Assembly: GCA_018650185.1 (NCBI GenBank)
Contig: JABIGL010000194.1
Span: 1-33,831 of the forward strand
DNA: 33,831 nucleotides
Origin: Chloroflexota bacterium
GTDB lineage: Bacteria; Chloroflexota; Dehalococcoidia; Lucifugimonadales; Lucifugimonadaceae
Direction of reading: 5' to 3'
This document shows positions 7,302-33,423 of the stretch, piece after piece. The translations under genes were made by a program, and so were the position numbers. The notes under the pieces were generated by a model. The model was not told where the DNA came from. It saw only the letters and a program-made list of their open reading frames with translations, and did not search any database. How positions within the stretch are numbered: the stretch's first letter is position 1; each line of letters begins with the position of its first letter.

Positions 7302-7417
7302 GCCCGAATCCTGTGTTATCTTCCGAACCCTCGCGCCCGCGTGAGTCGGTCGGCAATCTAATGTCATCGCCTCAACCATTTAGACCGCATTCCAGTGATA
7401 GGGGCACCCTCCGGCCT

Positions 7418-9271
7418 ATGTTCGTGATCGGAACCGCCGGCCACGTCGACCACGGCAAGTCGACCCTTATCGAGGCCCTGACCGGGATCGATCCTGACCG
7501 CCTGCGCGAGGAGAAGTCGCGTGGCATGACCATCGAGCTTGGCTTTGCGTGGGTAACGCTGCCGGGCGGACGAGAGGTCAGCATCGTGGACGTGCCCGGA
7601 CACGAACGTTTCATCAAGACGATGCTCATGGGCGCGGGCGGCGTGGACCTCGCGCTGTTGATCGTGGCGGCCGACGAAGGCGTGATGCCGCAGACGCGTG
7701 AACACCTGGCGATCTTAGATTTACTTGGAATCGAACGCGGCATCGTTGCGCTCACCAAAAGCGATCTCGTTGAGCCGGACTGGATTGAGCTGGTCACAGC
7801 GGAGATCGAGGAGACGCTCGTCGGCACTTCGCTCGAAGGCGCGCCGGTGCTTCCGGTGTCCGCAGTTACAGGCGACGGCCTACCGGAACTGCTGTCCACG
7901 ATCGACTCGGCGCTCGACGAAATGCCGGACAAGCGTGATCTCGGACGTCCACGGCTACCCGTTGACCGATCATTCACCATCTCCGGCTTCGGCACCGTCG
8001 TGACAGGAACCCTGGTCGACGGGACGTTACGGGTCGGTCAGGAAGTTGAGCTGCTGCCTGAAGGGGTGAAGTGCAGGATTCGCGGTCTTCAGACGCATCA
8101 AACGTCGGAAGAGATCGCTTACCCCGGCACTCGGGTCGCAGTGAACCTGAGCGGTATTTCGCATGACGAGGTTTCGCGTGGCGACGTAGTCACGACACCC
8201 GGCTGGTTATCAGCCGGAGATGCAATCGACGTGTCTCTTCGGCTGATCCTGGATGCACCTCGTTCTATCAAGCACAACGCCACCGTCACTTTCCACGTGG
8301 GGGCGGCAGAAACACCGGCCCGCATCCGGTTGCTCGCCGTGGACGAAATGGCGCCCGGAGATAGCAGCTGGGCCCAGATCAAACTCCAGGACCCAATGCC
8401 GGTCGTGAAGGACGATCTCTTTGTCATCCGAGACTCGAACTACACCCTCGGTGGCGGCGTTGTTGTGGAGGCGCATGCGAAGCGCCACAGGCGCAATCAC
8501 CAACCGACATTGGACCGACTTGAGACCCTGCGCCAGGGATCTGATTCGGACGTCCTGCATTCTGCGTTGGCGTCCACTGAACCAGCAGCAGCGGGTGCAC
8601 TAGCACAGGCGGCCAACCTGCCTGAAAACGCCATCGATGAGCAACTTGCAGTGCTTGTCGAGGACGGCCTCGCCGTTCCGCTGGGCGAAGGTGCAGGCAC
8701 GGTGTTTTACTCTTCCGGTGGCTGGGCACGCGTAGCTGCAGAGGCCGCCACTACGATTAGTGGATATCACAGCGTATTCCCACTACGACAGGGGATGCCC
8801 CGGGAGGAGCTGCGCAGCCGACTCGAGATGCGTGCGGCGGTCTTCAATCTGGTTGTCGAGAGATTGGTCGCAGACTCAGCTATCGAGGACGATGGCTCCA
8901 CGGTACGTATCCCGGGGCACGCGCCTGAGTTGGACGACGCCCAGAAGCAGATCGTCGACGGCTATCTGAAGCAGCTTGGCCAGAATCCTTATTCACCCCC
9001 CACCGACCAGCCTATTGACCCTGAACTGGTGGCAGCGCTGGCCGAGCAGGGTGAGGTGATCCGTGCCTCTGAAGATGTCGTTTTCCTGAAATCAGCGTAC
9101 GACCAGATGCTTGACGGTGTCCGCAAGCAGGCGGCAGAGAGTGGACAGATCACCATCACGGACGTGCGTGAAATGTTTGGCACGAGCCGGAAGTACACGC
9201 TCGCCCTCCTGGAGTACATGGACCGTCAGCAGATCACGCGCCGCATGGGCGACGAACGGGTGCTCCGATGA
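7418..9271 (+). CDS. selB: Selenocysteine-specific elongation factor SelB
   Basis: SelB delivers selenocysteyl-tRNA to ribosomes at UGA codons marked by a downstream SECIS hairpin. From the ATG at 7418 the product is 617 residues, close to the E. coli length. Visible are G1 GHVDHGKST (8-16), G3 DVPGHE (58-63), G4 TKSD (113-116), a domain 2 segment SGFGTVVTGTLVDG, and a long C-terminal region (about 400-617) fitting the winged-helix repeats that bind SECIS RNA. In-frame starts at 7313 and 7361 would add a 35-residue Ser/Pro/Arg-rich lead unlike the family, so 7418 is preferred. No selA, selD, selC or obvious UGA-containing selenoprotein gene lies in the window. It overlaps the next gene by four bases (ATGA). 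Confidence 0.88.
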   Translation: MFVIGTAGHVDHGKSTLIEALTGIDPDRLREEKSRGMTIELGFAWVTLPGGREVSIVDVPGHERFIKTMLMGAGGVDLALLIVAADEGVMPQTREHLAILDLLGIERGIVALTKSDLVEPDWIELVTAEIEETLVGTSLEGAPVLPVSAVTGDGLPELLSTIDSALDEMPDKRDLGRPRLPVDRSFTISGFGTVVTGTLVDGTLRVGQEVELLPEGVKCRIRGLQTHQTSEEIAYPGTRVAVNLSGISHDEVSRGDVVTTPGWLSAGDAIDVSLRLILDAPRSIKHNATVTFHVGAAETPARIRLLAVDEMAPGDSSWAQIKLQDPMPVVKDDLFVIRDSNYTLGGGVVVEAHAKRHRRNHQPTLDRLETLRQGSDSDVLHSALASTEPAAAGALAQAANLPENAIDEQLAVLVEDGLAVPLGEGAGTVFYSSGGWARVAAEAATTISGYHSVFPLRQGMPREELRSRLEMRAAVFNLVVERLVADSAIEDDGSTVRIPGHAPELDDAQKQIVDGYLKQLGQNPYSPPTDQPIDPELVAALAEQGEVIRASEDVVFLKSAYDQMLDGVRKQAAESGQITITDVREMFGTSRKYTLALLEYMDRQQITRRMGDERVLR

Positions 9272-29910: not shown

Positions 29911-29921
29911 CTGCGGCTCAC

Positions 29922-29937
29922 GCACCATATATAGGGG
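29922..29937 (+). promoter_or_regulatory. Candidate NrdR box 2
   Basis: GCACCATATATAGGGG agrees with about 12 of 16 positions of the NrdR consensus, including the ATATATAG core. Its place upstream of nrdR-nrdJ fits NrdR repression of its own operon and the reductase when dATP is high. Confidence 0.55.
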
Positions 29938-30021
29938 TTGCCGACAGTAGACCACTAGATCGTGTGTGACCCTTCTCACAAGGGATTGGCGTACTAATTC
30001 GGGAGGGTCGGAGGCTCAAAC

Positions 30022-30573
30022 GTGCAGTGCCCGTTTTGCGGCCATGACGACTCAAAGGTAATCGACTCACGGGAAGCCCCCGACGGAGTTCGACGCCGAC
30101 GAGAATGCACGGGATGTGGACTGCGGTTCACGACCTACGAGCGGGTGCACACCACGCCGCTGCTTCTCGCCAAGTCGGACGGTCGCAGGGAACCATTCTC
30201 CACGGAGAAACTTGAGCGATCCCTTCGATTAGCATGCGCCAAACGCCCCTTAGAGGTAGGAGCGATTGGGAAGATAGTTACGGATATCGATTCCGAGTTG
30301 CACCGTCTCGGCAAGGCTGAGGTTGAAAGTCGGGTCATCGGCGAGATGGTGATGGAGCGGTTGCGGGAGTTGGACCGGGTGGCGTACATCCGATACGCCT
30401 CGGTATACAGGGACTTTGAGGACCTGGATACCTTCGCCCAGGAGGTCGAGGCGCTTCGAGATGAAACGTCAGACGGCCCCAAACCGCAGCTCAGGCTGAT
30501 CGAGGATGACGTACCGAGACTTGCCAATCGAGGAAGAAGACGAAGGACTCGCAGGGCGGCCTCAGGAAACTAA
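30022..30573 (+). CDS. nrdR: Transcriptional repressor NrdR
   Basis: NrdR senses ATP/dATP with an ATP-cone and represses ribonucleotide reductase genes. The 183-residue protein has the zinc ribbon (Cys3, Cys6, Cys29, Cys32) with SREAPDGVRRRRECTGCGLRF between and around them, and an ATP-cone from about 46 to 136. Typical NrdR is about 150 residues; here about 30 extra C-terminal residues end in a basic run (RGRRRRTRRAASGN). It begins with GTG, with GGAGG eight bases upstream. nrdJ lies 309 bases downstream on the same strand. Confidence 0.95.
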   Translation: MQCPFCGHDDSKVIDSREAPDGVRRRRECTGCGLRFTTYERVHTTPLLLAKSDGRREPFSTEKLERSLRLACAKRPLEVGAIGKIVTDIDSELHRLGKAEVESRVIGEMVMERLRELDRVAYIRYASVYRDFEDLDTFAQEVEALRDETSDGPKPQLRLIEDDVPRLANRGRRRRTRRAASGN

Positions 30574-30648
30574 GGCTTCAGAACTGCAAAATAAACCGCT
30601 CCCGGTCGTGGGAGCCCGAGATCGAGAACAACGAGAAAGGAGGATCCG

Positions 30649-30756
30649 ATGCGCTTAGCGCGATGCCGGTCTACCGGCTCAACATCATTTTGGCGCGATC
30701 GGTTCCTCAGTGTTCCCGATGCGCCACGCGGACGAGGGCTTCTAAAGCTCTCGTAG
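30649..30756 (+). CDS. Possible 35-residue leader ORF upstream of nrdJ
   Basis: AAAGGAGG ends five bases before the ATG, one of the best ribosome binding sites in the window. The peptide is Arg-rich (MRLARCRSTG at the start, LLKLS at the end) with no family features. Its stop codon begins at the last base of the 30732-30754 hairpin, so translating ribosomes would disrupt two leader stems, as in attenuation-type control. Translation is unproven. Confidence 0.35.
   Translation: MRLARCRSTGSTSFWRDRFLSVPDAPRGRGLLKLS
30732..30754 (+). promoter_or_regulatory. Leader hairpin over the small ORF stop
   Basis: ACGAGGGCTT (30732-30741) pairs with AAGCTCTCGT (30745-30754) with one G-U pair and a three-base loop. 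The sequence after it, AGGCCCCG, has no T-run. Confidence 0.55.
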
Positions 30757-30761
30757 GCCCC

Positions 30762-30788
30762 GTTTGCGACCGATGATCGGTCACAAAC
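30762..30788 (+). promoter_or_regulatory. Last leader hairpin before nrdJ
   Basis: GTTTG (30762-30766) pairs with CAAAC (30784-30788) and GACCGA (30768-30773) with TCGGTC (30777-30782), with one C-A mismatch and a TGA loop. It lies about 95 bases before the nrdJ start. Confidence 0.55.
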
Positions 30789-30882: not shown

Positions 30883-33423
30883 ATGAGCACGGACACCACC
30901 CGTAACGGCCACGACAACACTGCAGCAACCACCGAGATCCTCACGGCGTTGAAAGATCGTGGTCTCATTCAAAACATTACAGAGGCGGCGACCCTGCTCG
31001 GAATAGCCGGAGCGGCCGACAACGCACCTGTAGATGGTGAGTTCGTTCCTGCCACCATCACGGATAACGCAAATGTGGTGCTAGAGAAGCGTTATCTGGA
31101 TAAGGACAACGACGGGGTTATCAAAGAAGACCCGCAGGGAATGTTCCGGCGGGTGGCCGGGACACTTGCGGCGGCCGACCGTGCGTACGGACAGACGGAT
31201 GCGCAGATTGATGCAACGGCCGAAGAGTTCTACCAGATAATGTCGTCATTGGAGTTCCTGCCGAACTCGCCGACGATGATGAACGCCGGAACCGGGGCGG
31301 GAACGCTCTCGGCCTGCTTTGTACTTCCTCTTAAAGACAGTATGGAAGGCATCATGGGCGCGGCACATGATGCCGCCATGGTGCAAAAATTCGGCGGCGG
31401 TACCGGATTCGCTCTGACGGACATCCGGGCCAAGGGCACGCCCATCCAGTCGACCCACGGCAGGGCCTGTGGTCCTATCGCCGTACTTCGACACCTGTCT
31501 TCCGTCTCCACACTCGTGACACAAGGCGGTAAGCGAGACGGCGCAAACATGGCCGTTATGAACGTGCACCACCCGGACATCCTGGAGTTCATCGACTGCA
31601 AGACGGTCGAGGGTGAAATCCACAACTTCAACATCTCCGTCGGCGCGACCGACGAGTTCATGCAGGCCGTTAAGGACGGCACCTCCTACGCGCTCAAGTC
31701 CAAAGAGGACCCGGCAGTCGCAGACAGTCCGATGGTCGAAGTCGGTCAGTTGGACGCACGCGAAGTATTCTCAAAAATTGTCCACGGCGCGTGGCGTAAC
31801 GGTGAGCCGGGCATGATCTTCCTGGACGAGGTGAACCGGAACAGCCCGGTGCTTCACCTCGGCGAGATCACTGCGACAAACCCATGCGGTGAGCAGCCTC
31901 TTCTGCCGAACGAGTCCTGCAACCTGGGTTCAATCGACGTTGCCAAATTCATCGTAGAAGATGCCGACGGCAATAAGGAGATCGACTACGACCACCTCCG
32001 GAAGGTGACACGCCTGAGCGTTCACTTCCTGGACAACGTCATCGACGCCAACAAGTACGCCGTTCCGGCCATCGAAGAGATGGCCAACTTCACCCGCAAG
32101 ATCGGGCTCGGAGTCATGGGCTTCGCAGACATGCTGGTGGAGCTGGGCGTTCCGTACGACAGCGACGAAGCCATCGAGATCGGACGGGCGCTGATGGCGT
32201 TCATCCGTGACGAGTCCGACCAGGCGTCTATCGACCTGGCAGCAGAGCGAGGACCTTTCCCGGCCTTCGCAGGCAGCAAGTGGGACGAGAACGGCGACCC
32301 GGACATCCGGAACGCCTGCCGACTGACCGTGGCGCCGACCGGAACGATCTCGATGATCGCCGGTTGCTCCAGCGGTATTGAGCCGATCTTCTCGCTGGCA
32401 TTCCGCAAGCAGAACATTCTTGAGGGCCAGACGCTCTTCTACGTGGACAAGAACTTTGAACGGATCGCCCGGGAGCGTGGCTTCTACAGCGAAGAGCTGC
32501 TCGAGCACCTTTCAGACGGCGGTTCTCTCCAGGACCGGGAAGATGTACCGGAGGATGTGAAACGTCTGTTCCACGTGGCCTCTGACATCAACCCGGAGTA
32601 CCACGTACGGATGCAGGCCGCTTTCCAGGAGAGCGTGGACGCCGGTATCTCTAAGACGATTAACTTCCCGAACGATGCGACCGTAGAGGACGTCGAGACG
32701 ACCTACATGAGCGCCTGGGAGTTGAAGTGCAAAGGCATCACGGTCTACCGTGCAGGCAGTCGTGAGAAAGAGGTTCTGACCACCGGTACAACGAACACTG
32801 CGAACGGATCAGCCGAGGCCGCCGAGCCACAGGTCATCCCGCAGTTCTCCGTGCCGCGTGATCGCCCCGCTTCTCTGCAAGGTGTAACCAACAGGGTTCG
32901 CACCGGACGCGGCCCGTTGTACGTGACGGTCAATGTGGCCGCCGACGGACGTCCGTTCGAGATGTTCGCGACGCTGGGCAAGGCCGGTGGAAATGATGCG
33001 GCGATGTCAGAAGGCATGTCCCGGCTGGCCTCGCTATCGCTCCGCTCTGGCGTCGACCCGGAAGAGATAATCAAGCAGCTACGTGGGATCACAGACGTTC
33101 CGGTATGGGACAACGGAGACCTGATTCGGTCGGTGCCGGATGCCATTTCGCTTGTGCTTGATCGTGTCTCAAACGCCGGACCTATGTCGGCGGGTGCTAT
33201 CGGTGATTCCGAGACGGCGCAGATCGGCATGTTTGAGCCGCCGGAGCCGGGAGACATCGGATTGATCTCGACCCGTGCAGCGGAAGCGACCGAGGTTACG
33301 AGTTCGGCCAGCCAGAGCATGGTCGAGGCACTCTCCACAGAGCTATGCCCGGACTGCAATTCAAGCCTAGCCCATGAAGAGGGCTGCGCTAAGTGTTATT
33401 CCTGCGGTTACAGCAGGTGCTGA
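30883..33423 (+). CDS. nrdJ: Vitamin B12-dependent (class II) ribonucleotide reductase NrdJ
   Basis: NrdJ uses adenosylcobalamin to make a thiyl radical and reduce ribonucleotides, with or without oxygen. The 846-residue protein has reductant Cys145 (in SACFVLPL), the catalytic NPCGE motif (Asn333, thiyl Cys335, Glu337), second reductant Cys346 (ESCNLGS), and GGKRDGANMAVMNVHHPDI in between. The C-terminus has a Cys-rich end (CPDC, then CAKCYSCGYSRC) that should relay electrons from thioredoxin. No ATP-cone is visible at the N-terminus, so overall-activity feedback by dATP is probably absent and control may fall to NrdR. It is preceded by a structured leader and followed by a strong terminator. 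Confidence 0.96.
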   Translation: MSTDTTRNGHDNTAATTEILTALKDRGLIQNITEAATLLGIAGAADNAPVDGEFVPATITDNANVVLEKRYLDKDNDGVIKEDPQGMFRRVAGTLAAADRAYGQTDAQIDATAEEFYQIMSSLEFLPNSPTMMNAGTGAGTLSACFVLPLKDSMEGIMGAAHDAAMVQKFGGGTGFALTDIRAKGTPIQSTHGRACGPIAVLRHLSSVSTLVTQGGKRDGANMAVMNVHHPDILEFIDCKTVEGEIHNFNISVGATDEFMQAVKDGTSYALKSKEDPAVADSPMVEVGQLDAREVFSKIVHGAWRNGEPGMIFLDEVNRNSPVLHLGEITATNPCGEQPLLPNESCNLGSIDVAKFIVEDADGNKEIDYDHLRKVTRLSVHFLDNVIDANKYAVPAIEEMANFTRKIGLGVMGFADMLVELGVPYDSDEAIEIGRALMAFIRDESDQASIDLAAERGPFPAFAGSKWDENGDPDIRNACRLTVAPTGTISMIAGCSSGIEPIFSLAFRKQNILEGQTLFYVDKNFERIARERGFYSEELLEHLSDGGSLQDREDVPEDVKRLFHVASDINPEYHVRMQAAFQESVDAGISKTINFPNDATVEDVETTYMSAWELKCKGITVYRAGSREKEVLTTGTTNTANGSAEAAEPQVIPQFSVPRDRPASLQGVTNRVRTGRGPLYVTVNVAADGRPFEMFATLGKAGGNDAAMSEGMSRLASLSLRSGVDPEEIIKQLRGITDVPVWDNGDLIRSVPDAISLVLDRVSNAGPMSAGAIGDSETAQIGMFEPPEPGDIGLISTRAAEATEVTSSASQSMVEALSTELCPDCNSSLAHEEGCAKCYSCGYSRC

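What the first reader, a model, noticed from the sequence alone, without database searches (positions are those of the whole stretch)
30598..30788. Five hairpins in a row form a structured RNA between nrdR and nrdJ
Five stems of 5 to 11 bp can be drawn in 190 bases without overlap, far denser than other spacers here. The gene controlled is a B12-dependent enzyme, yet the B12-box of cobalamin riboswitches is absent. This could be an unclassified cis-regulatory RNA or a small RNA.
Basis: partly seen in the sequence, partly recalled or inferred. Interest (0 to 1): 0.6.

Follow-up and report, generated by a model that had tools for sequence, protein, structure and literature searches.

The report
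Structured leader RNA before nrdJ
Between two genes for DNA-building-block synthesis, one genus of uncultured marine Chloroflexota keeps a folded stretch of messenger RNA that hides the start signal of a tiny reading frame, so it is probably an uncatalogued RNA control element for the vitamin-B12-dependent ribonucleotide reductase.

Summary
The hairpins are real: the 191-nt spacer folds better than all 200 shuffles (z -3.8). Only part of them is conserved. All 8 sequenced members of the genus carry one copy of a ~122-nt block (window 30635-30756), always between nrdR and nrdJ. It is absent from 68 other genomes of the family and matches no Rfam family.

Its core is a long stem-loop (30640-30708) that folds in 8/8 genomes (mean z -3.6). 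It buries a perfect Shine-Dalgarno (AAAGGAGG) and the ATG of a 35-codon ORF that ends where the conserved block ends. The block is conserved as nucleic acid rather than as protein: pN/pS 1.1, pS 0.19, against pS 0.53 and pN/pS 0.19 in nrdJ. A second conserved helix shares the stem's 3' arm, so the two are mutually exclusive.

Most likely it is a genus-specific cis-regulatory leader with an occluded upstream ORF that sets nrdJ expression relative to nrdR. The coupling mechanism is inferred. Compensatory changes are nearly absent because the stem arms are invariant, so covariation does not prove the structure. It is not a known cobalamin riboswitch. The outer hairpins (30598-30615, 30762-30788) are kept only in some species.

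The parts
29921..29968 (+). pair of NrdR-box-like sites (29921-29937 and 29952-29968, 31 bp apart) upstream of nrdR; presumed promoter-level control of the nrdR-nrdJ operon
   Evidence: conserved in the 7 genus members with sequence upstream of nrdR; box spacing and role as described for NrdR in PMC9110341
30022..30573 (+). nrdR, transcriptional repressor of ribonucleotide reductases
   Evidence: TIGR00244 E 4e-53, Pfam Zn_ribbon_NrdR + ATP-cone
30598..30615 (+). hairpin H1 between nrdR stop and the block; a stem is drawn here in most genus members but in varying form, absent in G004
   Evidence: (mean z of the 60 nt before the block -1.3), alignment
30635..30756 (+). conserved block, from the Shine-Dalgarno to the stop codon of the 35-codon ORF; 58% of columns invariant versus 21% of nrdJ third codon positions
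   Evidence: RNA model R1 finds it once in each of 8 genus genomes and nowhere else in the family
30636..30643 (+). perfect Shine-Dalgarno AAAGGAGG, 5 nt before the ATG; invariant in 8/8, its GGAGG predicted paired with probability about 0.8-0.99
30640..30708 (+). central stem-loop: P1 = 30640-30650 with 30698-30708 (98.8% of cells paired), enclosing P2 (30651-30654 with 30658-30661) and P3 (30665-30669 with 30674-30678); covers SD and start codon
30692..30725 (+). alternative helix, mutually exclusive with P1: 30692-30702 with 30716-30725 (second copy of CCGAUGCGC); would free the SD
   Evidence: 91% of cells paired versus 22-60% when slid; energies -9.5 to -16.6 kcal/mol
30649..30756 (+). 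35-codon ORF (MRLARCRSTGSTSFWRDRFLSVPDAPRGRGLLKLS); open and the same length in 7 of 8 genomes, frameshifted near the end in G002
   Evidence: no Pfam/NCBIfam match
30734..30752 (+). hairpin H4 at the end of the ORF (92% of cells paired, broken in G007; not more stable than shuffles on average)
30762..30788 (+). hairpin H5 just after the ORF stop; strong in the window, recognisable in G005 and G004 and perhaps G003, not in the rest
30883..33423 (+). nrdJ, adenosylcobalamin-dependent class II ribonucleotide reductase
   Evidence: NF006417 E 3e-294, TIGR02504 E 2e-206

Best explanation
The nrdR-nrdJ spacer of this genus holds a cis-acting structured mRNA leader. A long stem-loop (P1) pairs the Shine-Dalgarno and start codon of a 35-codon upstream ORF with a segment inside that ORF, so by default the ORF is closed. 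A second conserved helix uses the same 3' arm and would leave the Shine-Dalgarno free, so the RNA can exist in two states. Whether ribosomes enter the upstream ORF, or some signal or protein favours one state, then sets how much of the nrdR transcript continues into, or is translated as, nrdJ. Transcription attenuation or altered message stability are the likely links, because the ORF stop is 122-151 nt before nrdJ, too far for simple termination-reinitiation. Shown: conserved nucleotide-level block, stable predicted SD-occluding fold in all members, two mutually exclusive helices, ORF kept open in 7 of 8, one copy per genome always before nrdJ. Inferred: that the ORF is translated, that the two states interconvert, and that nrdJ output responds.
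For: Block present once in 8/8 genus genomes, always nrdR-nrdJ. Nucleotide-level constraint: pS 0.19 and pN/pS 1.12 in the ORF versus pS 0.53 and pN/pS 0.19 in nrdJ. Positions paired in single-sequence folds are enriched in invariant columns (p < 0.02 in 6 of 7 sequences, p 0.07 in the seventh). The central stem-loop has z -2.7 to -4.6 in all 8. SD and ATG predicted paired in all 8. P1 98.8% and P3 100% of cells paired, against 31-49% for the whole structure when slid; one compensatory change in P2. Alternative helix 91% paired. One indel event in the block versus a flank rate that predicts about 11 in the same comparisons (2 per 146 substitutions, both the same event, versus 29 per 397). The conserved block starts at the SD and ends at the stop codon. 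Precedent for SD-led uORFs in B12 riboswitch leaders controlling the next gene: M. tuberculosis ppe2 and metE (PMC11260477).
Against: Almost no covariation, since the arms are invariant, so structure rests on folding energy and on the paired/invariant overlap. Only 8 related genomes. Tests for coding or open-frame selection are weak (p about 0.1-0.2). One of 8 genomes has a frameshift in the ORF. No expression data. P1 (-30 to -38 kcal/mol) is far more stable than the alternative helix (-9.5 to -16.6), so switching would need a ribosome or factor.
Confidence: 0.5

Rival explanations
1. RNase III processing or stability element: the long stem-loop is a cleavage site or roadblock that separates nrdR from nrdJ messages so that repressor and enzyme are made at different levels. 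The ORF is incidental.
For: Long imperfect stem in an intra-operonic spacer; nucleotide-level, not protein-level, conservation; SD-like GGAGGA also serves as a stem arm.
Against: Does not explain why a full SD (including the bases before P1), the ATG and the stop codon are kept in 7 of 8, nor why the block ends at the stop codon.
Confidence: 0.2
2. A ligand-binding riboswitch of an unknown class, with P1-P2-P3 as the aptamer, sensing for example adenosylcobalamin or a nucleotide.
For: Three-way-junction-like fold with adjoining P1/P2; mutually exclusive alternative helix; location before an AdoCbl- and nucleotide-dependent enzyme.
Against: Restricted to one genus and one locus, unlike most riboswitches; no Rfam match; no other ribonucleotide reductase class was found here, so shutting nrdJ off with B12 would make little sense.
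Confidence: 0.12
3. A gene for a functional 35-residue basic protein.
For: Strong SD, ATG, fixed length, conserved stop; codons 22-35 show pN/pS 0.64 with a third-position excess.
Against: pN/pS 1.12 overall, no third-position excess, non-conservative changes at many codons; BLOSUM test p 0.11; no family match; frameshift in one species.
Confidence: 0.1
4. A trans-acting small RNA transcribed from the spacer on either strand.
For: Compact structured block; on the - strand H1 plus TTTATTTT looks like an intrinsic terminator.
Against: No promoter-like site in the region on either strand; terminator-like sites are near chance level (2 found versus 1.1 expected) and the T tail is not kept in relatives; always locked to nrdJ.
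Confidence: 0.05
5. Mostly chance structure in G+C-rich DNA, with the conservation due to something else at DNA level.
For: Full-core z-scores are only -0.2 to -2.5.
Against: Central stem-loop z below -2.6 in 8/8; paired positions preferentially invariant; pS nearly threefold below nrdJ.
Confidence: 0.03

Closest known systems
M. tuberculosis ppe2 and metE B12-riboswitch leaders with translated upstream ORFs (PMC11260477)
   Same: Structured leader containing a short SD-led ORF whose translation controls the next gene; linked to B12 biology
   Different: Those contain a B12 aptamer; ppe2's uORF overlaps the gene (AUGA), while here the ORF stop lies 122-151 nt before nrdJ and no known aptamer is found
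Cobalamin riboswitch (Rfam RF00174)
   Same: Cis-regulatory leader of B12-related genes; one copy sits elsewhere in this genome before btuC/btuF-like transporter genes
   Different: No match at the nrdJ spacer; different size and architecture
Ribosome-mediated attenuators with leader ORFs (general class, from general knowledge)
   Same: Leader ORF plus mutually exclusive helices, one occluding a ribosome-binding site
   Different: Here the occluded site is the leader ORF's own, and no regulatory codon run or U-tailed terminator is seen
Class II RNR operon nrdRJ of Actinobacteria (P. acnes, PMC3848588)
   Same: nrdR-nrdJ operon with NrdR boxes, without a cobalamin riboswitch annotated
   Different: No corresponding structured spacer is described in the passages read; its sequence was not examined here

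Membership tests
Cobalamin riboswitch (RF00174 and relatives) | covariance-model match at or above the curated score | tested here: not met
   no Rfam match in the window or in 7 relatives' loci at this place; positive control: RF00174 found elsewhere in the same genome at 73.5 bits
Any curated Rfam family | match above gathering score | tested here: not met
Conserved structured cis-regulatory RNA (generic) | conserved position upstream of the same gene | tested here: met
   8/8 genus genomes, one copy each, before nrdJ
Conserved structured cis-regulatory RNA (generic) | conserved, more-stable-than-chance fold | tested here: met
   central stem-loop z -2.7 to -4.6 in 8/8; cells paired 98%
Conserved structured cis-regulatory RNA (generic) | compensatory base changes beyond chance | tested here: inconclusive
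   one double change; 71 of 500 shuffles reach it; arms invariant
Leader ORF (uORF) attenuator | SD, start codon and open frame conserved | tested here: met
   SD and ATG in 8/8, 35-codon frame in 7/8
Leader ORF (uORF) attenuator | ORF is translated and its translation changes downstream expression | not testable with these tools
   needs ribosome profiling and reporters
Leader ORF (uORF) attenuator | mutually exclusive helices | tested here: met
   P1 and alternative helix share 30698-30702; interconversion not shown
Small-protein gene | purifying selection on the amino-acid sequence | tested here: not met
   pN/pS 1.12, no third-position excess; BLOSUM test p 0.11

The most novel reading that the evidence does not exclude
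A new class of regulatory RNA in marine Chloroflexota that controls class II ribonucleotide reductase by a two-state fold opening and closing an upstream ORF, possibly sensing adenosylcobalamin or nucleotide levels directly.
Probability: 0.12. Interest if true: 0.75.

Novelty: new member of a known kind. Interest (0 to 1): 0.4.

Why it matters
No class I small subunit or class III ribonucleotide reductase was found in this genome, so control of nrdJ bears on DNA synthesis in an uncultured lineage that seems to import B12. A second, RNA-level control beneath the NrdR repressor would be a new layer for class II enzymes. It is restricted to one genus, which limits its reach.

Tried and rejected
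Small-protein gene: looked strong at first (SD, ATG, fixed length), but codon statistics do not show protein-level selection. The first alignment mixed strands and was redone. Search of the ORF protein in the family: only genus members score clearly; the next hit (G075, E 0.003) lies inside a longer, unrelated ORF, and that genome's nrdJ is on another contig. RNA model in 294 class genomes: two weak matches (E about 0.05); the stretches fetched around them hold no convincing nrdR or nrdJ. H5 covariation: three double changes were counted, but no better than shuffles with 4 sequences, and G003 was in the wrong register. A structure with the wrong register for P3 was replaced. Minus-strand terminator at H1: near chance level and its T tail not conserved. 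Rho-type attenuation: the last 95 nt before nrdJ are richer in C than G (C/G 1.2-2.1), suggestive only. Literature searches for an nrdJ leader RNA found none in the held library. A whole-window z-scan timed out and was rerun coarser.

Full report
What is there. The window is one contig (C32) of a Chloroflexota genome assembly (G000; its relatives in the public collection are labelled Dehalococcoidia or Chloroflexi MAGs). nrdR (30022-30573) and nrdJ (30883-33423) are confirmed by curated models. They lie head to tail, with a pair of NrdR-box-like sites upstream of nrdR that is conserved in the genus (29921-29968). Among other ribonucleotide reductases, the class I small subunit and the class III enzyme were searched in the assembly (94% complete) and not found.

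The observation. The 191-nt stretch 30598-30788 folds at z -3.8, with none of 200 shuffles as stable. It contains three of the 13 lowest-z windows among 845 in the window. Rfam has no match at any reasonable score, in the window or at this place in relatives. So the structure density is above chance.

Comparison across relatives. The genus has 8 genomes held. All carry a block of about 122 nt (window 30635-30756) between nrdR and nrdJ, without gaps apart from one 1-nt insertion in G002. A covariance model of the block finds it once in each of these 8 genomes and in none of the other 68 genomes of the family. It finds no convincing match in 294 genomes of the class. The nrdR-nrdJ pair itself is family-wide, usually with a short spacer.

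RNA or protein? The block contains AAAGGAGG, a 5-nt gap, ATG and 35 codons, and it ends at the stop codon. It first looked like a small gene. The codon statistics say otherwise. Pairwise differences are spread evenly over codon positions (168/143/152). pN/pS is 1.12, and pS (0.19) is far below that of nrdJ (0.53), where pN/pS is 0.19. Tests for amino-acid similarity and for avoidance of stops give p about 0.1-0.2. The 5' part, which forms the stem-loop, has third positions more conserved than the others (pN/pS 1.74), as expected when the RNA is under constraint. The 3' part leans slightly the other way (0.71 for codons 21-35, 0.64 for 22-35). The frame is nonetheless open in 7 of 8 genomes, and indels are rarer than in the flanks.

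Structure. Bases paired in each sequence's own minimum-energy fold are enriched for invariant columns (p < 0.02 in 6 of 7, p 0.07 in G004). The stem-loop 30640-30708 has z between -2.7 and -4.6 in all 8 genomes, while the rest of the spacer is not consistently structured. Helix P1 (30640-30650 with 30698-30708) is 98.8% paired. Within its arms the position that varies most is the internal mismatch; the only broken pair is one in G004. P2 has one compensatory change in G001, and P3 is 100% paired. The arms barely vary, so covariation cannot prove the structure. The SD and ATG are predicted to be paired in all 8. A second helix (30692-30702 with 30716-30725) reuses the P1 3' arm with a repeated CCGAUGCGC and is 91% paired. 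It is much weaker than P1.

Outer hairpins. H1 (30598-30615) takes different forms in relatives and is missing in G004. H4 (30734-30752) is broken in G007. H5 (30762-30788) is clear in three or four species only. 'Five hairpins in a row' is therefore a feature of this genome, not of the genus.

Mechanism. The best reading is a cis-acting leader that occludes its own upstream ORF and sets nrdJ output, by attenuation or message stability. Translation of the ORF and any effect on nrdJ are inferred. A published parallel is the uORFs in M. tuberculosis B12-riboswitch leaders (PMC11260477). [quoted passage not shown] In P. acnes, which has the same nrdRJ operon, no cobalamin riboswitch is annotated before nrdRJ (PMC3848588). 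In the present genome the one cobalamin riboswitch precedes btuC/btuF-like genes (gene names from the look of the translations, not from a family search), so B12 control appears to be placed on uptake, not on nrdJ.

Limits. Eight related genomes, no expression data, no metagenome scan available, and E-values from a briefly calibrated model. The literature search covers only the open-licence library. From memory, an 'nrdJ motif' RNA was described in other bacteria; I could not find it in the held papers, and no Rfam model matched.

Noticed in passing
L077 (G020) and L112 (G074), nrdR-nrdJ spacer: In two relatives of other genera the nrdR-nrdJ spacer carries inserted small genes: in G074 an HNH-like ORF and a small basic ORF, in G020 a different small basic ORF. 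The spacer may be an insertion hot spot.
   Followed up: no
L127 (G000:C9:12720-12862, - strand): The genome's single cobalamin riboswitch (73.5 bits) precedes btuC/btuF-like B12 uptake genes.
   Followed up: partly
window 29921-29968: Two NrdR-box-like sites about three helical turns apart upstream of nrdR, conserved in the genus.
   Followed up: partly
window 7313-9271: selB-like gene (selenocysteine-specific elongation factor, TIGR00475 E 3e-100); no tRNA was found in the window, and selenoproteins were not sought.
   Followed up: no
window 26889, 29649 and 33489: Very stable hairpins (z -4.6 to -6.1) at or just after the ends of the rsmH, ftsZ and nrdJ genes, probably terminators.
   Followed up: no
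L006/L020 (G002), about 80 nt into the block: A 1-nt insertion shifts the 35-codon frame in one species; either an assembly error at low coverage or real loss of the frame.
   Followed up: no
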